Source of the DNA: Desulfatitalea tepidiphila
GTDB taxonomy: Bacteria > Desulfobacterota > Desulfobacteria > Desulfobacterales > Desulfosarcinaceae
Reading direction: 5' to 3'
Length of the DNA: 64,000 nt
Assembly: GCF_001293685.1 (NCBI RefSeq)
Contig: NZ_BCAG01000001.1
Coordinates: 372,001-436,000, forward strand
Made by a program: the position numbers and the translations under genes. The notes under the pieces were generated by a model that did no database searches, was not told the DNA's origin, and saw nothing but the letters and a program-made list of their open reading frames with translations. Positions within the stretch are counted from its first letter, which is position 1, and each line of letters begins with the position of its first letter. Positions 609 through 14,532 of the stretch are shown here, piece by piece.

Positions 609-1448
609 TCAGCGGGTCGAATCGGGTTTTCGATTGGGCGCCATGCCGAGCTTCAGACGGTCGAAGATCAGCGAGATAAGAAAGGCGAGGCTCGACACCA
701 GGATGATTGCGGCCCCCGAGGTCAGGTCGTACCGATAGGAGAGCCAGAGACCGCAGACGGTGAACAGGGCGCCGAGAACGCTGGATGCGACCATCATCTG
801 GAGCAGGGATTTGGCGTATTTTTCCACGATGAACGGCGGGATGGTCAGCAGCGCGATGACCAGGATCAACCCCACGACCTGGATGACCAGCACGATGGTG
901 ACGGCCAGCAGCCCGATCATGCCGAAATAGAGCGTTTTGACAGGTACTCCCCGGATCTGGGCAAACTCTTCATCATAGCTGATGGCCAGCAAATCCTTGT
1001 AGTAATAAATCACCGCCAACGTGATGAATAGACCCATCCCGGTCATAATATAGAGGTCCGTAACCGGAACCGTGAGGATGCTGCCGAACAGATAGCTCAT
1101 CAGGTCCACATGGTAACCCGGCGTCAGATCGAGCAGGATGATGCCTACTGCCATGCCCAGAGCCCAAATGACGCCAATGATGGTGTCGGCGCGATGCCGG
1201 GCCCGAAGGGTCACGGCGGCCATGACCATGGCGGCGGCGAATGAAAATCCGATGGTGCCCACCAGGTAAGGCCAGCCGAAAAAAAAGGCCATGCCGATAC
1301 CGCCATAAGCGGCGTGGGCGATCCCGCCCGAGAGAAACACGATGCGGTTGACCACGACCAGGGTGCCCATGATGCCGCAGATGATGCTGGCCAGTAGCCC
1401 GGCCGCGAGGGCGTGGCGCATGAAGTCAAATTCGAGGGCCTCGATCAT
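609..1448 (-). CDS. znuB: Metal (Zn/Mn) ABC transporter permease, ZnuB type
   Basis: A 279-residue, very hydrophobic protein of the ABC-3 (ZnuB/MntB/TroC) permease family that forms the membrane channel of a Zn2+/Mn2+ importer. Family hallmarks are visible: an early LSGGIAHAAYGGIG segment and the conserved late VVGLILVIALLTIPP helix. I chose the ATG at 1448 (MIEALEFDF) rather than an upstream in-frame codon inside the ATPase gene, because the start then falls 5 bases past the ATPase stop and matches the family length. It is last of a three-gene minus-strand operon with znuA and znuC. Zinc as substrate is inferred from the His-rich binding protein. Confidence 0.9.
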   Translation of the reverse strand: MIEALEFDFMRHALAAGLLASIICGIMGTLVVVNRIVFLSGGIAHAAYGGIGMAFFFGWPYLVGTIGFSFAAAMVMAAVTLRARHRADTIIGVIWALGMAVGIILLDLTPGYHVDLMSYLFGSILTVPVTDLYIMTGMGLFITLAVIYYYKDLLAISYDEEFAQIRGVPVKTLYFGMIGLLAVTIVLVIQVVGLILVIALLTIPPFIVEKYAKSLLQMMVASSVLGALFTVCGLWLSYRYDLTSGAAIILVSSLAFLISLIFDRLKLGMAPNRKPDSTR

Positions 1449-6663: not shown

Positions 6664-7230
6664 CTATTTCTTCGGACCGCGTGATGACCTGTTTTTGATG
6701 GCATCGACTTTTTCTTTCAACGGTATCGAAAAGACGTCGCAACGTTCAATGCATTTTTCAGGTTTGTGGCCATGCCGGCGATACTCTTCGAAATGCTCAA
6801 GCCAGCTTTCCCCAGCCCGCGGGCATGTCTGAATGAACTCCATGAAGTCGGTCAGGCTGGCCAGGGTGCCTTCGCTGAGGGTATGCTCCATTTTACAGGC
6901 CTCTTCGTCGGCGACCTTGGATTTGATTTTCAGAATTTCGGTCAGGAATTTGAACAGCACCCCGTGCCGTCGCCTCATCTCCTTGCCGATATCTGCGCCA
7001 TCCTTGGTCAATTCCACATATTCGTACTTTTCGTAACTGACCAAACCCCGGCTTTTCAGGGTTTTGAGCATGCTGGAGACGGTTGGCATTTTAACGTCCA
7101 GCCGTTTGGCGATATCCTTTACGCGAACGACTTTTTTTTCCCTGTCCAGATCGAAAATCGCCTCAAGGTAATCCTCCATGACAGAGGTCAACGGCTTATC
7201 CGCGAGACTCTCTTTTTTGGTGGATACCAT
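6664..7230 (-). CDS. DtxR/MntR-family metal-dependent transcriptional regulator
   Basis: A 188-residue regulator that probably represses metal-uptake genes when Mn2+ or Fe2+ is bound. Residues about 15-80 form the winged helix (SVMEDYLEAIFDLDREKKVV then VKDIAKRLDVKMPTVSSMLK, the recognition helix), followed by the dimerisation domain with RRRHGVLFKFLTEIL (ancillary-site His) and EEACKMEHTLSEGTL (Cys/Glu/His of the primary site). The pattern C-x2-EH is closer to iron-type DtxR than to MntR, though metal choice is not certain. There is no C-terminal SH3 domain; instead there is a basic/Cys-containing tail (RHGHKPEKCIERCDVFS). It is divergent from the second metal importer, the likely regulatory target. 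Confidence 0.88.
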   Translation of the reverse strand: MVSTKKESLADKPLTSVMEDYLEAIFDLDREKKVVRVKDIAKRLDVKMPTVSSMLKTLKSRGLVSYEKYEYVELTKDGADIGKEMRRRHGVLFKFLTEILKIKSKVADEEACKMEHTLSEGTLASLTDFMEFIQTCPRAGESWLEHFEEYRRHGHKPEKCIERCDVFSIPLKEKVDAIKNRSSRGPKK

Positions 7231-7275: not shown

Positions 7276-7340
7276 CTAATAATGGAAGGATGCACTCATT
7301 GTCAAGCCATCTTTTGACAAGGCCCGGTGACAAGGCCCGG
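7276..7340. promoter_or_regulatory. Divergent promoter/operator region between the DtxR-type regulator and metal importer
   Basis: On the minus strand TTGACA (7305-7300), an 18-base spacer and TATTAG (7281-7276) form a plausible sigma-70 promoter for the regulator. The same TTGACA is one arm of an inverted repeat TTGTCAA-N8-TTGACAA (7299-7320), whose other arm is a plus-strand TTGACA facing the importer. Directly following is an exact 13-bp tandem repeat TGACAAGGCCCGG (7315-7327 and 7328-7340). A 10-bp palindrome TAAAATTTTA at 7261-7270 lies between this promoter and the regulator start and could be an autoregulatory site. Confidence 0.45.
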
Positions 7341-7484
7341 GATGTTGCCACCGTTCAACTGAACGCATTCACCATGCCCCGTTTTAATACGTCTGCGGCT
7401 GTATCATTCCGCTATTTTCATTGCATGCGATCGATGGCTTGCTTTATGATGCGTTGGCAAAATTTCAGCCGGAGGAACTTGCGC

Positions 7485-8525
7485 ATGTCGAAGAGGTGGA
7501 GCGCACCCAGGGGGATGGATTTGCCTTTACGCCATCGATGCCGTTGGATCGTGTCAGCCGCCGCTGTTTTGATATTGGGTTGGGCCGCGGCGGCTTCAGG
7601 CAACGCATACAAGGGAAGCTACCCATACAAGGCATTGGCCACGGTGGGCATGGTGGCCGACATCGTGAGGCAGGTGGCCGGCGACAAGGCCGAGGTGACG
7701 CAGATCATCGGCGCCGGCGTCGATCCCCACTTATACAACCCCACGCGCGGCGACGTGGCGGCGCTGATCAAGTCGGACATCATTTTTTACGCCGGATTGT
7801 TGCTCGAAGGACAGATGACCGATATTCTGGTCAAGATCTCGCGCCGCCGGCCGGTGATTGCCGTGACCGAGCTGCTCCAGGTGGGCGACCTGATTCGTGA
7901 TGTCCAATCGGGTCATCACGACCCGCATGTCTGGATGGATGTGAGCCGGTGGAACCTTGCCGTGAAGGTGGTGGTGGACGCCCTGGTTGCATTCGACCCG
8001 GTGAATGACGATGTTTACAGGCGTAACGGCGAACGATACCAGATCCGGCTCCAGGAACTGGACGATTATGTGCGCCGGGTCATCGGTTCGATTCCCGAAC
8101 AACAGCGCATTCTGGTGACGGCCCACGATGCCTTCAACTATCTGGGGCGGGCATACGGCATAGAGGTGTTGGGCATCCAAGGCCTCTCCACGGAATCCGA
8201 GGCTGGCTTGAAAGACATCAACCGCATCGTGGACGTGCTGGTCAGCCGCCGCGTGCCGGCGGTATTCGTGGAGTCCAGCGTGTCCGACAAGAACGCCAGG
8301 GCGCTGATCGAAGGGGCCGCGTCGCGCGGCCATCAGGTCATCGTCGGCGGGGAGCTGTTTTCCGACGCCATGGGCGCGGCCGGCACTTACGAGGGCACCT
8401 ACATGGGGATGATCGATCACAACGCCACGGTGATTGCACGGGCACTGGGCGGCCGGGCACCGGCCGGGGGAATGCAGGGCAAACTCAGTCTTGCGCATCA
8501 AACTAAAGTATCCATCCGGAAATAG
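7485..8525 (+). CDS. Metal ABC transporter substrate-binding protein (MntA/TroA-like)
   Basis: A 346-residue cluster A-I periplasmic binding protein. The start at 7485 is fixed by GGAGGA eight bases upstream; the frame is open for 195 more bases upstream but that stretch looks non-coding. The N-terminus carries an extended basic region then a hydrophobic signal (WIVSAAAVLILGWAAAASG). The four expected metal ligands are in place: His in GVDPHLYNP, His in HHDPHVWMDV, Glu in GLSTESEAG and Asp in MGMIDHNA. There is no His-rich loop, in contrast to the ZnuA-like protein at 2241-3167, which suggests Mn2+ or Fe2+ as cargo. It is first gene of a plus-strand importer operon. Confidence 0.92.
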   Translation: MSKRWSAPRGMDLPLRHRCRWIVSAAAVLILGWAAAASGNAYKGSYPYKALATVGMVADIVRQVAGDKAEVTQIIGAGVDPHLYNPTRGDVAALIKSDIIFYAGLLLEGQMTDILVKISRRRPVIAVTELLQVGDLIRDVQSGHHDPHVWMDVSRWNLAVKVVVDALVAFDPVNDDVYRRNGERYQIRLQELDDYVRRVIGSIPEQQRILVTAHDAFNYLGRAYGIEVLGIQGLSTESEAGLKDINRIVDVLVSRRVPAVFVESSVSDKNARALIEGAASRGHQVIVGGELFSDAMGAAGTYEGTYMGMIDHNATVIARALGGRAPAGGMQGKLSLAHQTKVSIRK

Positions 8526-8540: not shown

Positions 8541-9377
8541 ATGTCCAACTTATCCGAATTCGAAAACATAGCCGACGCGGGGCAGGAGACAGCCCCGATC
8601 TGGATCAACGACCTGACGGTGGCCTACCATCGAAAACCGGTGTTGTGGGATGTGAACCTGGTGCTGCCCGAGGGCAAGCTCGTGGCCGTCATAGGCCCCA
8701 ACGGCGCCGGCAAGAGCACCCTGATCAAGGCCATCCTGGGGCTGGTGCCCAAAGCAACCGGCGATATTCGCATCTACGGCCGTTCATATGAAGCCCAGCG
8801 GCGTCTGGTGGGTTATGTGCCCCAGCGCGAGAGTGTGGATTGGGATTTTCCGGTCAGCGCGACAGATGTTGTGGCCATGGGATTGTATGGGAAAATTGGC
8901 TGGCTGAAACCGGTGTCGCGGCGCCATCGCGAACAGGCGGTCGAGGAGCTGCGCAAGGTGGGTATGGAGGCCTATGCCGATCGACAGATCAGTCAGCTTT
9001 CCGGTGGCCAGCAACAGCGTGTCTTCCTGGCGCGCGCCCTGGCCCAGGATGCGCAGGTTTACTTCATGGATGAGCCGTTCGCCGGCGTGGACGTGGCCAC
9101 CGAAAAGGCGATCGTTGCCCTGCTCAAGGAGCTCAAGACGGCCGGTAAGACTTGCGTGGTGGTCCATCATGATTTGCAGACCGTGACCACTTACTTCGAT
9201 CACGTGGTGCTGCTCAACATGCGGGTGGTGGCTGCCGGGCCCGTCGAGGAGGTCTTCACCGAAGAGAATTTGAAGAAGACTTACGGCGGCAAGCTGACGC
9301 TGCTCAGCCAGGCGCTGCATAAGTACGCCCAGCAGCCGGGGATTGGAACGGGGGGTGCCAAAGGGGGGCACCGATAA
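8541..9377 (+). CDS. Metal ABC transporter ATP-binding protein
   Basis: A 278-residue ATPase of the manganese/zinc/iron importer family. Walker A is GPNGAGKSTLIKAIL (about residue 55), the Q-loop region is GYVPQRESVDWDFPVSATDV (the MntB/TroB-type variant), the ABC signature LSGGQQQRVFLARAL, Walker B VYFMDEPFAGVD and the switch His VVVHHDLQT. It starts 15 bases after the binding-protein gene, and its TAA stop overlaps the next ATG by one base, so the genes are translationally coupled. Residues 1-17 are an acidic extension ahead of the first strand. Confidence 0.93.
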   Translation: MSNLSEFENIADAGQETAPIWINDLTVAYHRKPVLWDVNLVLPEGKLVAVIGPNGAGKSTLIKAILGLVPKATGDIRIYGRSYEAQRRLVGYVPQRESVDWDFPVSATDVVAMGLYGKIGWLKPVSRRHREQAVEELRKVGMEAYADRQISQLSGGQQQRVFLARALAQDAQVYFMDEPFAGVDVATEKAIVALLKELKTAGKTCVVVHHDLQTVTTYFDHVVLLNMRVVAAGPVEEVFTEENLKKTYGGKLTLLSQALHKYAQQPGIGTGGAKGGHR

Positions 9378-10858
9378 TGCCGGGTTCATCCATTAAGAGA
9401 ATGGTCTCCCATGGCCTTGGTTGGATTGCGGCGGCCGCTTGGGTTTGGTTCTGGCCCGACCTGGCCCATGCCGGCGGCTTGGGCGACACCGGCCTGCAGT
9501 GGCCCGGTTGGCAAGAACTGCTGCGTGTGTTGACCTTGAGAGATTACAATACCCGCGTGGTCATCGTCGGCACCACCCTGCTGGGGCTGGCCGCCGGATT
9601 GAGCGGGACATTTTTGATTCTGCGCAAGAGGGCGTTGCTCAGCGACACCCTCAGCCATGCCACCCTGCCCGGGATCGCGCTGGCATTTATCCTGATGACC
9701 GTCTTTTTCGGCGACGGCAAATCCCTCATTGGACTCATCGCCGGTGCCGCCGTATTTGCGGTGCTGGGGACCGGCTCGGTGCTGGTGATCGAGCGCTACT
9801 CGCGGCTGAAGGACGATGCGGCATTAGGGGTCGTGCTGAGCGTCTATTTCGGCCTGGGCATCGCCATCATGGGCATCGCCACTCGCATGGAGACAGGCAA
9901 TTCGGCCGGACTCACCTCCTTCATCTACGGCAAAACCGCTTCCATGCTGTTATTTGACGCACTGCTCATTGCGGTGACGGCTTTTGTCGCGGCGCTGCTC
10001 TGCCTGCTGTTCTTCAAGGAGTTTTCCCTCGTCTGCTTCGATGCAGATTTTGCCCTTACCCAGGGATGGCCCGTGGCGCGCCTGGACTTCTTCATGATGT
10101 CCCTCGTGGTGGTGGTGACCGTGGTGGGGCTGCAGGCCGTGGGGCTCATCCTGGTGGTGGCCCTGTTGATCATACCGCCGTCGACGGCCCGTTTCTGGAG
10201 TCGTCGGCTCTCGGTCATGCTCGTTTTGTCGGCCGGCTTCGGCGCGTTGAGCAGCATGATCGGCGCAGCGGTCAGCGCCTTGATGGCCAATTTGCCGGCA
10301 GGCGCGGTGATTGTCATGACGGCCTCGTCCCTGTTTTTCTTCAGCCTGGTGTTTGGCACCAACGGCGGGTTGTTGCAAATGGCCCTTGACCGCTGGCGCC
10401 TCGGCAAAAAGGTGATGCACGAAAATTTGCTGCGCGAGCTGTATGAATGGCAGGAGATCGCGGCCCAACAGAGCGGCGCTATTGCGGACAAAACCCGCAT
10501 CGACGGTCCCCGCCTGGAAGAATTGCTGCCCAGACGGTCCTGGTCGGTCCACGGCCTGCAAAAAGGGTTGCGTCAGCTGATCCGAAAGGGGTGGCTTCGT
10601 TTGTCCCCGGAAGGACGGTATTTTTTCACGCCGGAAGGCGTTTTGCAGGCGCGCGCGGTGGTCCGCAAGCATCGGCTATGGGAAGCCTATCTGATCGCAT
10701 ACGCCGATACGGCGCCGGGCCAGGTGGATTGGGGGGCCGATGCCATCGAACACGTTATCGACGAGCGGATCATCGCCGAGTTGGAAGCCGGTTTGCCCGA
10801 TTGGACGCCCAAAGCCGTGCCGGAGAGTCCGCACGAGCTGATCCGCAGTGGGGTATAG
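9377..10858 (+). CDS. Metal ABC permease fused to a C-terminal DtxR-like domain (first copy)
   Basis: 493 residues, compared with about 280-300 for ordinary members. Residues about 55-335 are an ABC-3 permease (LSGTFLILRKRALLSDTLSHA and VVGLQAVGLILVVALLIIPP). From about residue 350 the chain becomes soluble and follows the DtxR layout: a winged helix (LRELYEWQEIAA, LQKGLRQLIRKGWLRLSPEG), then a dimerisation-type segment with VVRKHRLWEAYLI and VDWGADAIEHVID. His432, Glu436, Asp455, Glu458 and His459 align with DtxR metal ligands, with Asp where DtxR has Cys102. Known relatives include the chlamydial YtgCR fusion. The tail may gate transport, or act as a membrane-tethered or released repressor; which is not shown. 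Confidence 0.88.
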   Translation: MPGSSIKRMVSHGLGWIAAAAWVWFWPDLAHAGGLGDTGLQWPGWQELLRVLTLRDYNTRVVIVGTTLLGLAAGLSGTFLILRKRALLSDTLSHATLPGIALAFILMTVFFGDGKSLIGLIAGAAVFAVLGTGSVLVIERYSRLKDDAALGVVLSVYFGLGIAIMGIATRMETGNSAGLTSFIYGKTASMLLFDALLIAVTAFVAALLCLLFFKEFSLVCFDADFALTQGWPVARLDFFMMSLVVVVTVVGLQAVGLILVVALLIIPPSTARFWSRRLSVMLVLSAGFGALSSMIGAAVSALMANLPAGAVIVMTASSLFFFSLVFGTNGGLLQMALDRWRLGKKVMHENLLRELYEWQEIAAQQSGAIADKTRIDGPRLEELLPRRSWSVHGLQKGLRQLIRKGWLRLSPEGRYFFTPEGVLQARAVVRKHRLWEAYLIAYADTAPGQVDWGADAIEHVIDERIIAELEAGLPDWTPKAVPESPHELIRSGV

Positions 10859-10862
10859 GCAT

Positions 10863-12161
10863 ATGGAATGGACCTTTATCGACAGCTGGATTATCGTCAC
10901 CGGCATCCTCAGCGCCATGTCCTGCGCACTGCTGGGAAACTATCTCGTGCTGCGGCGCATGAGCATGATGGGCGATGCCATCAGCCATGCCGTGCTGCCC
11001 GGCCTGGCCATCGCATTTCTGGTCAGCGGCAGCCGGGACAGTTTGCCTATGCTCGTCGGCGCGGTGGGTGTGGGGGTCCTGACAGCGGTATTGATTCAAG
11101 CCATCGGCAAGCTCAGCGGATTGGACCAGGGGGCCTCCATGGGGGTGATTTTCACCACGCTTTTCGCTTTGGGATTGATTCTGATCCGCCAGGCCGCCGA
11201 TCATGTGGACCTCGATCCGGGCTGTGTGCTTTATGGCGCCATCGAGCTTACCCCGCTGGACGTCTACGCGCTATTCGGGTGGGAGATCCCCCGCGCGGCA
11301 GTGACCAACGGGATCATGCTGTTGGTCAATGTGCTTTTCGTGGTTTTCTTCTTCAAGGAATTGCGCATCACGTCCTTTGACCCCGCGCTGGCCACCACCA
11401 TGGGATTTAACGCGGGAGTGATGCATTACGTGCTGATGGCGCTCGTGGCCGCCACCACCATCGCCGCGTTCGAAAGCGTGGGCAGTATCCTGGTGATCGC
11501 CATGCTGATCGTGCCGGCCGCCACCGCCCACCTGCTGACCGATCGGCTGGTGGCCATGCTGGCGATCAGTCTCGTCGTCGCCGCCCTGTCGGCCGTCCTG
11601 GGTCATCTTGGCGCGATTACCATACCGACTTGGATCGGTTTCCGCGATACGAGCACCGCCGGGATGATGGCCGTGGCTGTCGGTGTCTTGTTTCTGGCGG
11701 TTTTTCTTTTCGCCCCCCGCCACGGCATCATCGGCCGGATGGTCGCCCAGGGTCTCCTGACATTGCGTGTCAACCGGGACGACATCCTGGGCATGCTCTA
11801 CCGGGTGCAGGAATTGTCCGGCCAACGGTCACCTGCCGTCAAAACGGATGATCTGCGCAAGGCCTTGTTGACCGGCGGCTGGGTGAACCTGGCCCTTGCC
11901 GACCTGCTGCGGACCCGAATGGTGCGGCGCACCCTGGAAGGTGTGGTGTTGACGGAAAGCGGCCTATCATCGGCCGCCAACCTAATCCGTTCCCATCGCC
12001 TCTGGGAGAGTTATCTGTGCGGCCAGATGGGGTTTTGCGACGCCGAGGCGCATTACAGCGCCCATCAACTGGAGCACGTGACCGACGAGGCCATGCAGGA
12101 GCGGTTGAAGCGTGCTGCCAACTATCCCACCCTGGACCCGCACCGGAAAGCGATTCCATGA
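10863..12161 (+). CDS. Metal ABC permease fused to a C-terminal DtxR-like domain (second copy)
   Basis: A 432-residue paralogue of the preceding permease, started at the ATG at 10863, five bases after the previous stop (an in-frame GTG lies 15 bases earlier). Residues 1-290 are the ABC-3 permease domain (MSMMGDAISHAVLPGLA; SVGSILVIAMLIVPAA). Residues about 300-432 are a DtxR-like module: ILGMLYRVQELSG and DLRKALLTGGWVNLALADLL as winged helix, then LIRSHRLWESYLC and AHYSAHQLEHVTDEA. Predicted ligands are His378, Glu382, His397, His401, Glu404 and His405, a more His-rich set than in the first copy. The two permeases presumably form a heterodimeric channel with paired sensor domains on the cytoplasmic face. 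Confidence 0.87.
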   Translation: MEWTFIDSWIIVTGILSAMSCALLGNYLVLRRMSMMGDAISHAVLPGLAIAFLVSGSRDSLPMLVGAVGVGVLTAVLIQAIGKLSGLDQGASMGVIFTTLFALGLILIRQAADHVDLDPGCVLYGAIELTPLDVYALFGWEIPRAAVTNGIMLLVNVLFVVFFFKELRITSFDPALATTMGFNAGVMHYVLMALVAATTIAAFESVGSILVIAMLIVPAATAHLLTDRLVAMLAISLVVAALSAVLGHLGAITIPTWIGFRDTSTAGMMAVAVGVLFLAVFLFAPRHGIIGRMVAQGLLTLRVNRDDILGMLYRVQELSGQRSPAVKTDDLRKALLTGGWVNLALADLLRTRMVRRTLEGVVLTESGLSSAANLIRSHRLWESYLCGQMGFCDAEAHYSAHQLEHVTDEAMQERLKRAANYPTLDPHRKAIP

Positions 12162-12186: not shown

Positions 12187-14532
12187 GTGACGCTTCAAGT
12201 GATAGTGCTGCTTGCGATCGTGGCCGTTGCGCTTGTCATTTTCATCGGGGGTTGGCTGTCGGTGGACCTGGTCGGCCTGCTCGTGCTGGCGGCCCTTGCC
12301 TTGGGCGGATTTGTCACAGCCGAGCAGGCGTTGGCCGGATTCAGCAGCCCGGCGGTGGTGACCGTCTGGGCGATGTTCATTCTCTCCGCGGGATTGAACC
12401 GCACCGGTGTCGCCCATCGTCTGGGGCAGCCGCTGCAGCGTTTCTCAAAAGGCAGCGAGGTGCTGCTCGTGGTGGTGCTGATGGCGGCCGCGAGCCTTTT
12501 GTCGGCCCTGATCAACACCGTGACGGTGGCCGCGATCCTGTTGCCCGCGACCATGGAACTGGCCCGGCGCAGCGGCCGTCCGCCCTCACGTTTACTGATG
12601 CCGCTGGCGCTCGGATGTCTGCTGGGCGGTCCGTTTACCGGCATCTCGACCCCGCCCAACATCCTGGCCACCGATGCCCTGCGCACCGCCGGGCTCGAGA
12701 CGTTTGCCATCTTCGACTTCACCCCCATCACGGCGGCCATCGTGGCGGCCGGTATCGTTTTTATGGTGGTGATCGGGCGTCGCCTGCTGCCTGCGCGGGC
12801 CAAGGAAGCTGCTGACGGCGGCCGATTGTCCAGGCAGGATCCCTACCAGCTCGGTACCCACATCTTCACCACCCATATTCGATCGGGATCGACCCTGGTC
12901 GGCCACTCGTTGGCCGAGAGCCGCCTTGGCTCGGCCCTCTTCCTGACCGTGGTGGCGCTTCAACGTCAAGGGGACTTGATCCTTGCACCTCGGCCCACGG
13001 AAATTCTGCAGGTGGACGACAGACTGATCGTGCACGGCCAACCCGATCATCTGCGACGCTTTCATGGCAGTCAGCATCTCCAGGTCGAATCTTCCGAGTC
13101 GGCAAGGGAGTTGATCCTCGAGAGGCTGGCGGCCGCCGAGGGACGGGTGGCCGACGACTCACCCCTCGTGGGGGCGACGCTGGCCGAGAGTGGCCTGCGG
13201 CCCAAATATCGGGTCCACGTGTTGATGCTTCGCGATGCGGCCGGCAACGTTGTTCTGGATCCAAGGCGCCATCGTTTCGCCGCGGGCGATCGTTTGCTGC
13301 TTCAGGGGGAAATGGAGGCCCTGGAAGCGCTGACCGGCCAAGGGTTCGTGGCTGAAGCGCGATTCGTGCCCCAGGATGAGGTGGATCGATTGACCAGCGG
13401 CCGTGCCAGGTTGTTGACCGTCCGGGTCCCGAGCGGATCGGTACTGGCCGATCGGGATCTGGTCGAGAGCCGCCTGGGAAATGCCTTCGGCCTTACCGTG
13501 GCGGGGATCGTTCGCGGTGAGACGTTGATCTGTTTGCCGTCGCCCCATGAGAAGGTGCAGGCCGGTGATCTCCTGGTGATGCAGGGGACGACGCAGGACC
13601 TGGAGATTCTCGAAGGACTTCAGGCCCTGGAAATCAGCGAACAGTCCGCCGATTTGCTGGCCGAATTGGAGTCCCAGCAAATCGGCGTGACCGAAGTGCT
13701 GCTGTCACCCCGGACCACGCTGGCGGGCCGGACCCTGGCCGACCTTCTCTTCCGGGATCATTACGGTGTCAGTGTGCTGGCCATCTGGAGAAACGGACAA
13801 GCATACCGTACCGGCCTGCAGGATATGCCGCTCAAGTTCGGGGACGCCCTTCTGGTCTACGGGCAGCGGCAAAAGCTGGAGGCCGTGGCGCGCGATCGCG
13901 ATTTTCTCGTGCTCGACCCGGCGGCCGTGCAGGCCCCCCGACTGGAGAAGGCCGGCATTGCCACGGTCATCATGCTGGCGGTGATCCTGGGTGCGATCCT
14001 CGGCCTGGTTCCCATCGCCATCGCCGCCGTCGCCGGGTCAGCGCTCATGGTCCTGGTCGGATGCCTGAGCATGGAAGAGGCCTACCGCGCCATCGAATGG
14101 AAGGTCATTTTTCTCATCGCCTGCATGTTGCCCCTGGGAGTGGCCATCGAGAATTCGGGTGCGGCCCAGATGGGCGCCCAGGTGCTGATCGGCGTGGTCG
14201 GGCAATACGGGCCCCGCTGGGTGGTGGCGGCGCTCTTCCTGGTCACCGTGATCGGCACCCAGGTGATCCCCACGGCGGCATTGGTGGTCTTGATGGCACC
14301 GGTGGCCCTCAGCGCCGCATCGACCCTGGGGATTTCGCCTCAGCTCTTGATGATGACGGTGGCGATCTCCGCTTCATCGAGTTTTGCCAGCCCGCTGTCG
14401 CATCCCGCCCACCTGCTGGTCATGGGGCCCGGCGGATATCGTTTCATCGACTATGTGAAGGTGGGAGTTCCGTTGACCGTGGTCACGTTCGGGGTCTCGG
14501 TGTGGCTCCTGCCGATCCTCTGGCCGGCTTGA
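12187..14532 (+). CDS. SLC13-family anion permease with four RCK_C (TrkA-C) repeats
   Basis: 781 residues starting at GTG 12187 behind a GAGGTGA site, 25 bases after the metal permease, so probably part of that operon. The membrane halves (about 1-205 and 590-781) are of the DASS/SLC13 permease family, with a GPFTGISTPPNILAT segment in the first half and IGTQVIPTAALVVLMAPVAL in the second. Between them lie four ligand-binding RCK_C-type repeats, each with a xSxLVGxxLAESRLG-like entry and an L..GD.LLVxG exit (about residues 220-290, 310-380, 410-480 and 505-575); most relatives have two. Substrates of the family include sulfate, di- and tricarboxylates. The cargo here is not determinable. Confidence 0.85.
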   Translation: MTLQVIVLLAIVAVALVIFIGGWLSVDLVGLLVLAALALGGFVTAEQALAGFSSPAVVTVWAMFILSAGLNRTGVAHRLGQPLQRFSKGSEVLLVVVLMAAASLLSALINTVTVAAILLPATMELARRSGRPPSRLLMPLALGCLLGGPFTGISTPPNILATDALRTAGLETFAIFDFTPITAAIVAAGIVFMVVIGRRLLPARAKEAADGGRLSRQDPYQLGTHIFTTHIRSGSTLVGHSLAESRLGSALFLTVVALQRQGDLILAPRPTEILQVDDRLIVHGQPDHLRRFHGSQHLQVESSESARELILERLAAAEGRVADDSPLVGATLAESGLRPKYRVHVLMLRDAAGNVVLDPRRHRFAAGDRLLLQGEMEALEALTGQGFVAEARFVPQDEVDRLTSGRARLLTVRVPSGSVLADRDLVESRLGNAFGLTVAGIVRGETLICLPSPHEKVQAGDLLVMQGTTQDLEILEGLQALEISEQSADLLAELESQQIGVTEVLLSPRTTLAGRTLADLLFRDHYGVSVLAIWRNGQAYRTGLQDMPLKFGDALLVYGQRQKLEAVARDRDFLVLDPAAVQAPRLEKAGIATVIMLAVILGAILGLVPIAIAAVAGSALMVLVGCLSMEEAYRAIEWKVIFLIACMLPLGVAIENSGAAQMGAQVLIGVVGQYGPRWVVAALFLVTVIGTQVIPTAALVVLMAPVALSAASTLGISPQLLMMTVAISASSSFASPLSHPAHLLVMGPGGYRFIDYVKVGVPLTVVTFGVSVWLLPILWPA

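What the first reader, a model, noticed from the sequence alone, without database searches (positions are those of the whole stretch)
9377..12161. Both permeases of a metal ABC importer carry full DtxR-like sensor domains
Seen in sequence: each permease is extended by about 130-145 residues with a winged-helix-like stretch and the His-x3-Glu plus Glu-His ligand pattern of DtxR. Known: Chlamydia has one such fusion (YtgCR), where the repressor part is released. Here both subunits carry it, in a free-living sulfate reducer that also has a separate DtxR-family regulator next door. The pair might sense cytosolic metal and gate the channel, sequester DNA at the membrane, or be processed.
Basis: partly seen in the sequence, partly recalled or inferred. 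Interest (0 to 1): 0.8.

Follow-up and report, generated by a model that had tools for sequence, protein, structure and literature searches.

The report
Metal importer with built-in metal sensors
Both membrane halves of a bacterial metal importer carry the metal-sensing and pairing part of a gene repressor whose DNA-reading face looks worn away, which suggests that the importer may sense the metal it brings in and throttle itself.

Summary
Both ABC-3 permeases (9377-10858, 10848-12161) end in a DtxR-type tail: Pfam Fe_dep_repr_C above its cut-off in both, DtxR-like in predicted structures. It is not unique. Permease-repressor fusions are reported from 11 phyla (quoted in PMC5599777). The two-tailed pair is in 9 of 60 genomes, own included, and at least 21 of 195 Planctomycetota. 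The tree makes P1 the counterpart of chlamydial YtgC and P2 of YtgD, so Chlamydia's one-tailed system probably lost a tail.

Of 108 tails, picked by their metal part, the DtxR DNA-binding Pfam domain is found in 1 (33 of 35 free DtxRs). Best reading, unproven: a metal sensor on both importer halves that throttles transport, with transcription left to the DtxR next door. Against it: chlamydial tails lack the same Pfam domain, yet YtgR is reported to bind DNA; the tails' winged helices are positively charged; five Desulfobacterota genomes keep only the winged helix on both permeases. New variant of a known kind.

The parts
9377..10858 (+). P1: first permease, ABC-3 membrane domain plus C-terminal DtxR-type tail (493 aa)
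   Evidence: AF2 mean pLDDT 85.6; PsaC-like, TMt 0.84-0.90
9551..10354 (+). P1 ABC-3 permease domain (residues 59-326)
   Evidence: PF00950 195.4 bits
10421..10627 (+). P1 tail, winged-helix part (about residues 349-417); no PF01325 match
10628..10789 (+). P1 tail, metal-binding and dimerisation part (residues 418-471); H432, E436, D451, D455, E458, H459
   Evidence: PF02742 39.7 bits, cut-off 27; ligand columns
10848..12161 (+). P2: second permease, ABC-3 membrane domain plus C-terminal DtxR-type tail (437 aa from GTG; ATG alternative at 10863); overlaps the end of P1
   Evidence: AF2 mean pLDDT 90.6; PsaC-like, TMt 0.81-0.86
10890..11711 (+). P2 ABC-3 permease domain (residues 15-288)
   Evidence: PF00950 148.9 bits
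11772..11951 (+). P2 tail, winged-helix part (about residues 309-368); no PF01325 match
11952..12158 (+). P2 tail, metal-binding and dimerisation part (residues 369-437); H383, E387, H402, H406, E409, H410, plus D312 in the first tail helix
   Evidence: PF02742 62.8 bits
8541..9377 (+). ATP-binding subunit of the importer; its stop overlaps the P1 start
   Evidence: PF00005; nearest NCBIfam model is a manganese/iron ABC ATPase, below its cut-off
7290..8525 (+). ZnuA-type substrate-binding protein; the true start may be the ATG at 7515, ahead of a signal-peptide-like stretch (in one search homology begins at residue 81-91 in five of the eight loci with a match, at 100 in one, at 41-42 in two)
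   Evidence: PF01297 251 bits; sequence
6664..7230 (-). separate free-standing DtxR-family regulator, divergent from the operon
   Evidence: PF01325 72.6 bits and PF02742 69.6 bits

Best explanation
P1 and P2 form the heterodimeric membrane channel of a divalent-metal ABC importer (manganese, iron or zinc; not resolved). Each half carries a cytosolic DtxR-type tail joined to its last membrane segment by one continuous helix. DtxR-type domains work as metal-dependent dimers, so the two tails of one transporter can pair beneath it. When cytosolic metal is sufficient, metal binding changes or locks the tail pair and slows the transport cycle: direct feedback at the protein level, in the manner of the transinhibited importers MetNI and ModABC. 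Transcriptional control is left to the separate DtxR next door. Shown here: tail architecture, ligand conservation, DtxR fold in the models, drift of the recognition helix, grouping with YtgC/YtgD. Inferred: cytosolic side, P1-P2 pairing, tail-tail contact, metal binding. Not shown: any effect on transport.
For: (1) The DtxR DNA-binding Pfam domain is found in 1 of 108 tails, against 33 of 35 free DtxR rows; the metal domain in 108 of 108, but the tails were picked by it. (2) In single-permease relatives the metal-site columns are more conserved than in free DtxRs (0.21 against 0.90 bits; 0.29 against 0.74 when the two columns fixed by the scan pattern are left out) and the recognition-helix columns far less (3.21 against 1.72 bits). 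(3) Between the window and 7 relatives the winged helix is less conserved than the other two domains: 33-58% identity, metal part 51-79%, permease 70-87%. (4) In both models the helix after the last membrane segment runs unbroken into the first DtxR helix (P1 332-366; P2 289-319 of the modelled 432 residues). (5) Two tails per transporter look like the common state: 53 of 80 loci have a lone tailed permease with more than 1.5 kb on both sides and 6 have two tailed permeases; in G062, G064 and G068 the tailed permease is the only ABC-3 match found, so it would have to pair with itself. (6) The own genome has two free DtxRs; in Chlamydiota, where the tail is a reported repressor, 54 of the 61 genomes with a tail have no other PF02742 match. 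(7) Transinhibition through dimerising cytosolic domains is described for MetNI and ModABC (PMC10710835, passages).
Against: Chlamydial tails also lack PF01325 (0 of 7) and YtgR is nevertheless reported to bind DNA (PMC5599777, passages), so loss of the Pfam match does not prove loss of DNA binding. In P1 and in Chlamydiota the recognition-helix entropy (1.95 and 1.86 bits) is little above that of free DtxRs (1.72) (few sequences). The winged-helix part of the fused tails is more positively charged than that of free DtxRs (mean net charge P2 +2.1, P1 +1.6, single +0.7, Chlamydiota +4.1, free DtxR -0.4). In five Desulfobacterota genomes both permeases keep a winged helix and lack the metal domain, so the winged helix has a use of its own and metal sensing can be given up. 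The connecting stretch varies in sequence (23-69% identity). P1's ligand set is unusual, so its metal binding is uncertain. No complex model, metal binding or transport measurement was available.
Confidence: 0.42

Rival explanations
1. YtgR-like repressor: one or both tails are clipped off (or act while tethered) and bind DNA to repress metal genes.
For: P1 groups with chlamydial YtgC (100/100); YtgR is reported to be cleaved and to bind DNA (PMC5599777, PMC6504234 and PMC7755916, passages); both models match DtxR-family chains over winged helix and metal part; winged-helix parts are positively charged.
Against: Recognition helix highly variable in single-permease and P2 tails and no PF01325 match; a separate DtxR with both domains is adjacent; unbroken helix in the models instead of a loose linker; no internal start with a Shine-Dalgarno-like site ahead of either tail.
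Confidence: 0.22
2. The tails are an assembly, gating or metal-handling platform not tuned to metal feedback: the winged helix contacts the ATPase, the partner tail or the membrane, and the metal part buffers or hands on the imported ion.
For: Winged-helix-only tails on both permeases in five genomes; group-specific invariant winged-helix residues (P1 R42 and W44, P2 L42 and R57 in the reference numbering); OpuA is an ABC importer whose membrane-proximal helix-turn-helix motif modulates its sensitivity to osmotic change (PMC10710835, passages).
Against: Near-invariance of the metal ligands across phyla (the first two are fixed by the scan pattern in the loci) suggests selected metal binding rather than a bare scaffold.
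Confidence: 0.22
3. The tails recruit the free DtxR through their shared dimerisation fold and so couple transporter state to transcription.
For: Tails share the dimerisation domain with the adjacent DtxR; a free DtxR lies in the fetched locus in 5 of 9 two-tailed systems of the window and its relatives.
Against: The neighbouring free DtxRs are not one close group: 89% identity to the window's in G007 but 32%, 28% and 37% in G015, G029 and G011. None was found in the fetched locus in 4 of 9, two of them limited by contig ends.
Confidence: 0.08
4. Decaying fusion without present function.
For: Patchy occurrence in the genus (3 of 11); shortened forms exist; YtgD has no tail.
Against: dN below dS in every metal-part and winged-helix comparison where dS could be computed (dS is high, so rough); conserved ligands; tails kept on both permeases in two phyla.
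Confidence: 0.06

Closest known systems
YtgCR / YtgD of Chlamydia (ytgABCD; permease-repressor fusion)
   Same: ABC-3 permease with C-terminal DtxR-type domain in a metal importer operon with two permeases; P1 groups with YtgC and P2 with YtgD
   Different: Chlamydia: tail on YtgC only, and in 54 of 61 genomes the only PF02742 match. Here: tail on both permeases, changed ligands in P1, separate DtxR next door
DtxR/MntR/SloR/IdeR metalloregulators
   Same: Two-domain fold and metal ligand positions
   Different: Fused to a membrane permease; DNA-binding Pfam domain not recognisable; recognition helix drifted
PsaBC importer of Streptococcus pneumoniae (7kyp, 7kyo; manganese, recalled)
   Same: Permease fold: best structural match of both models
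   Different: The matched chains are 258-290 residues, too short for such a tail
MetNI and ModABC, transinhibited ABC importers
   Same: Proposed logic: a dimerising cytosolic domain senses the imported substrate and stops the cycle (PMC10710835, passages)
   Different: Their sensor domains sit on the ATPase subunit and have other folds; here on the membrane subunit with DtxR fold; inhibition unproven
OpuA
   Same: ABC importer with a regulatory helix-turn-helix near the membrane (PMC10710835, passages)
   Different: That motif lies in the ATPase subunit and responds to osmotic change; not DtxR-type

Membership tests
ABC-3 divalent-metal importer permease | PF00950 over its cut-off with ATPase and ZnuA-type binding protein in the operon | tested here: met
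   PsaC-like fold
DtxR-family metalloregulator | Metal-binding and dimerisation domain PF02742 | tested here: met
   both tails over cut-off
DtxR-family metalloregulator | N-terminal DNA-binding domain PF01325 | tested here: not met
   no match at E up to 1; the winged-helix fold is seen only by structure and profile comparison
DtxR-family metalloregulator | Metal-dependent DNA binding | not testable with these tools
   needs protein
YtgCR-type permease-repressor fusion | ABC-3 permease with C-terminal DtxR-type domain, orthologous to YtgC | tested here: met
   P1 with YtgC 100/100, P2 with YtgD 100/99; YtgD outside all fused permeases rejected, p-AU 0.009
YtgCR-type permease-repressor fusion | Repressor part released by cleavage and active on DNA | not testable with these tools
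   no protein data; no internal start found
YtgCR-type permease-repressor fusion | One tailed and one tail-less permease, as in Chlamydia | tested here: not met
   both tailed
Transinhibited ABC importer (MetNI, ModABC kind) | Regulatory domain on the ATPase subunit | tested here: not met
   the domain is on the permeases; the ATPase ORF is 278 aa and, of the 25 best families shown, only P-loop ATPase models reach their cut-off
Transinhibited ABC importer (MetNI, ModABC kind) | Substrate in the cytosol stops transport | not testable with these tools
   needs a transport assay

The most novel reading that the evidence does not exclude
A metalloregulator core has been turned into a permanent, two-part (P1:P2) metal valve on an ABC importer: DNA reading was given up, metal sensing kept on both halves, and P1 and P2 specialised into different ligand sets. 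Chlamydia's single YtgR repressor would then be a derived remnant of a two-tailed transporter rather than the origin of the design.
Probability: 0.33. Interest if true: 0.75.

Novelty: new variant of a known kind. Interest (0 to 1): 0.52.

Why it matters
If the tails gate transport, this would be direct metal feedback on an ABC-3 importer, a transporter class that includes well-studied manganese, zinc and iron systems, through a fold known from transcription factors. It would also turn round the picture of YtgCR: the free-living two-tailed transporter as the older form and the chlamydial one-tailed system as derived. The series two full tails, two winged-helix-only tails, one tail, no tail offers natural controls for testing what each part does.

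Tried and rejected
Considered and rejected: that the tail is a generic permease extension (ligands conserved, DtxR fold in both models); that the two-tailed state is unique to this genome; that a free tail is made from an internal start (no Shine-Dalgarno-like site ahead of a start before either tail; the only hit lies at P2 residue 420). An operator for DtxR upstream of the binding protein was sought with inverted repeats only; five pairs were listed and none struck me as DtxR-like; inconclusive. The metal could not be named: the NCBIfam models listed for binding protein, ATPase and permeases are all below their cut-offs and point to Mn/Fe and Zn alike. Literature: searches (search 69 was on transinhibition) showed no listed title or abstract start that describes tails on both permeases; I read passages of three Chlamydia papers and one transport review. 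The primary paper on YtgCR cleavage is not held and was seen only as cited. Names and numbering of DtxR/MntR ligand positions (8 or 10, 11, 79, 83, 98, 102, 105, 106) are recalled; titles of PDB entries (C102D, H79A, M10A, E9A) agree with some of them.

Selection and dropped rows. The tails were found through their metal part (PF02742, or the pattern [VIL]RxHRLWE[SAT]Y), so '108 of 108 with PF02742' is not independent evidence, and two of the seven metal columns are fixed by the pattern; one search repeats the entropy without them. Tree: two permeases cut by locus ends were dropped and single-permease rows thinned (81 to 50). Tree: also three identical copies, four other long or odd rows and more single-permease rows. 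Tree: single tails thinned (73 to 34). Tree: eight more near-copies left out. In the tail sets the window is represented by its near-identical copy in G007 (P1 100%, P2 99.8%); six short duplicate loci and L106 and L114 were left out. The 35 free DtxR rows hold 33 distinct sequences and lean to the window's phylum. Tree cautions: only 15 permeases outside the fused-plus-YtgD set were sampled, the test was named after seeing the tree, fused plus YtgD as one clade is merely not rejected (p-AU 0.37), and in the tail tree P1 plus YtgC is not a clade, though not rejected either (p-AU 0.44).
Full report
What is there. The window holds a complete metal ABC importer operon: ZnuA-type binding protein (7290-8525, real start perhaps 7515), ATPase (8541-9377), permease P1 (9377-10858) and permease P2 (10848-12161), with a free-standing DtxR-family regulator divergent from it (6664-7230). 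Both permeases match PF00950 and, beyond it, PF02742, the metal-binding and dimerisation domain of DtxR, over the curated cut-off (39.7 and 62.8 bits, cut-off 27). Neither tail matches PF01325, the DtxR DNA-binding domain, at E up to 1, whereas the neighbouring DtxR matches it at 72.6 bits. The genome has four PF02742 matches: these two and two free DtxRs.

Structure. AlphaFold2 models from alignments of 34 and 31 sequences are good (P2 mean pLDDT 90.6, P1 85.6). Foldseek matches each model to the pneumococcal permease PsaC (7kyp and 7kyo, TMt 0.81-0.86 for P2 and 0.84-0.90 for P1) and, through the tail, to DtxR-family repressors (8pvt: TMt 0.81 for P2, 0.78 for P1; alignments of about 125-156 columns, so the winged helix is included). 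In both models one unbroken helix leads from the last membrane segment into the first DtxR helix, although the sequence of this stretch varies (23-69% identity between relatives). These are single-chain models; the pair and the ATPase were not modelled.

Ligands. The positions equal to DtxR 79, 83, 105 and 106 are His, Glu, Glu, His almost without exception in P1, P2, single-permease and Chlamydiota tails (one Gln at 105 among 73 single tails; the first two are fixed by the scan pattern in the loci). P2 adds Asp in the first tail helix (13 of 13), His at 98 (13 of 13) and His at 102 (9 of 13; the others E, E, S, N). P1 instead has Asn in the first helix (9 of 13), Asp at 98 and Asp at 102 (13 of 13 each) and Arg at the place of MntR Glu11 (13 of 13). 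These counts leave out the divergent L120 pair, whose tails carry Asn, His and Glu. So P1 and P2 have diverged into two ligand sets; whether P1 still binds metal is open, though DtxR C102D has been crystallised with nickel (entry titles).

Distribution. Of the 80 loci kept, 53 hold one tailed permease alone with more than 1.5 kb on both sides, 18 the same with less flank, 6 two tailed permeases (five Planctomycetota, one Desulfococcus), 1 a tailed and an untailed pair (Chlamydiia), 2 no complete fused frame. Among 60 genomes, own included, the two-tailed pair is linked in 8 and split over two contigs in 1; in the genus, 3 of 11. In an even sample of the phylum, P1 at 62% identity or more is in 2 of 296, own included; a further tail-length match at 31% identity (G598) looks like the single type. 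In Planctomycetota, joining by eye the rows gives 20 of 195 genomes with linked P1 and P2, and reading the DNA of G139 adds one, so at least 21; in one more (G087) they are unlinked. In Chlamydiota 61 of 63 genomes have a PF02742 match inside a frame of 413-474 aa, and 54 of these 61 have no other match. The seven chlamydial loci read each have an untailed second permease.

Descent. In the careful tree (78 rows) P1 groups with chlamydial YtgC (100/100) and P2, with one single-type permease, groups with YtgD (100/99), while SitC and SitD pair with each other. Placing YtgD outside all fused permeases is rejected (p-AU 0.009); fused permeases plus YtgD as one group is not rejected (p-AU 0.37). 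Tails of fused permeases fall on one side of free DtxRs (81/100). The simplest reading is that a tailed permease duplicated into P1 and P2 and that YtgD later lost its tail; sampling of unfused permeases is thin.

What is conserved. PF02742 is found in 28 of 28 two-tailed, 7 of 7 Chlamydiota and 73 of 73 single tails, which were picked by that part; PF01325 in 0, 0 and 1 of these, but in 33 of 35 free DtxR rows (E up to 0.01). Sequence-weighted entropy in single-permease tails is 0.21 bits at metal columns and 3.21 at recognition-helix columns; in free DtxRs 0.90 and 1.72. Leaving out the columns fixed by the scan pattern gives 0.29 against 0.74. P2 shows the same trend (0.26 and 2.43); in P1 (0.12 and 1.95) and the seven Chlamydiota tails (0.0 and 1.86) the recognition helix is little more variable than in free DtxRs. 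The winged helix is nevertheless homologous to that of DtxR (hhalign probability 96-98% for P1, P2, Chlamydiota and single tails).

Results that pull the other way. Chlamydial tails share the missing Pfam match, yet YtgR is reported to bind DNA in an iron-dependent way and to be cleaved from YtgC (PMC5599777, PMC6504234, PMC7755916; passages). The winged helices of the fused tails are more positive than those of free DtxRs. Five Desulfobacterota genomes of one family (G411, G458, G517, G576, G626) have a P1/P2-type pair in which both permeases end just before the metal helix, keeping only the winged helix; the P1-type member has a conserved GHGGVD motif there; Pfam finds no PF02742 in the three pairs scanned. 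Their P1 falls in the P1-YtgC clade (99) and their P2 next to YtgD (96) in a quick tree. So the winged helix does something by itself, and metal sensing can be lost.

Mechanism. Because ABC importers have two membrane halves and DtxR-type domains work as dimers (established knowledge), two tails per transporter, either by a homodimer of one tailed permease or by P1 plus P2, give each transporter its own potential DtxR-like pair. With metal ligands kept, the DNA face drifting, and a separate DtxR at hand, the most likely role is metal feedback on transport, as MetNI and ModABC do with other domains on their ATPases (PMC10710835, passages). I give this 0.42. The YtgR-like repressor and a platform role not tuned to feedback follow at 0.22 each; recruitment of the free DtxR and decay are less likely. 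No step from metal binding to transport has been shown.

Novelty. The fusion as such is known, in 11 phyla according to work quoted in PMC5599777. I found no paper on both permeases being tailed, on the P1/P2 to YtgC/YtgD correspondence or on winged-helix-only tails in searches, which cover open-licence papers only. I file it as a new variant of a known kind.

Noticed in passing
window 7409 to about 15408 against L037: An 8-kb block with the importer operon and the downstream CitMHS gene is 98.4-100% identical (250-base steps) to another genome of the genus (G007), while the flanks are 78-97% identical, with an edge between the DtxR gene and the binding-protein gene. Recent exchange between species, or a mis-assembled or mis-binned draft.
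   Followed up: partly
L170, L171, L172, L177, L179: P1/P2-type permease pairs in which both members end after a winged helix, without the metal-binding domain.
   Followed up: partly
between SBP and ABC genes of single-permease operons, e.g. L071:4822-5340, L074:4849-5355, L052:4836-5351: A conserved gene for a protein of about 170 aa with an N-terminal hydrophobic stretch; the L071 copy matches ORFs in 38 other loci. No Pfam family over its cut-off in the three copies scanned.
   Followed up: partly
L044:6092-7657 and L045:36-1589: Single tailed permeases of 517-521 aa have further residues (up to about 90) after the DtxR part that look like the FeoA/SH3-type third domain of DtxR; not tested.
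   Followed up: no
window 663-1430, minus strand: A second, untailed ABC-3 permease with an ATPase beside it lies in the same window.
   Followed up: no
window 12187-14532: A CitMHS transporter with TrkA_C domains follows P2 after 25 bases and may be co-transcribed.
   Followed up: no
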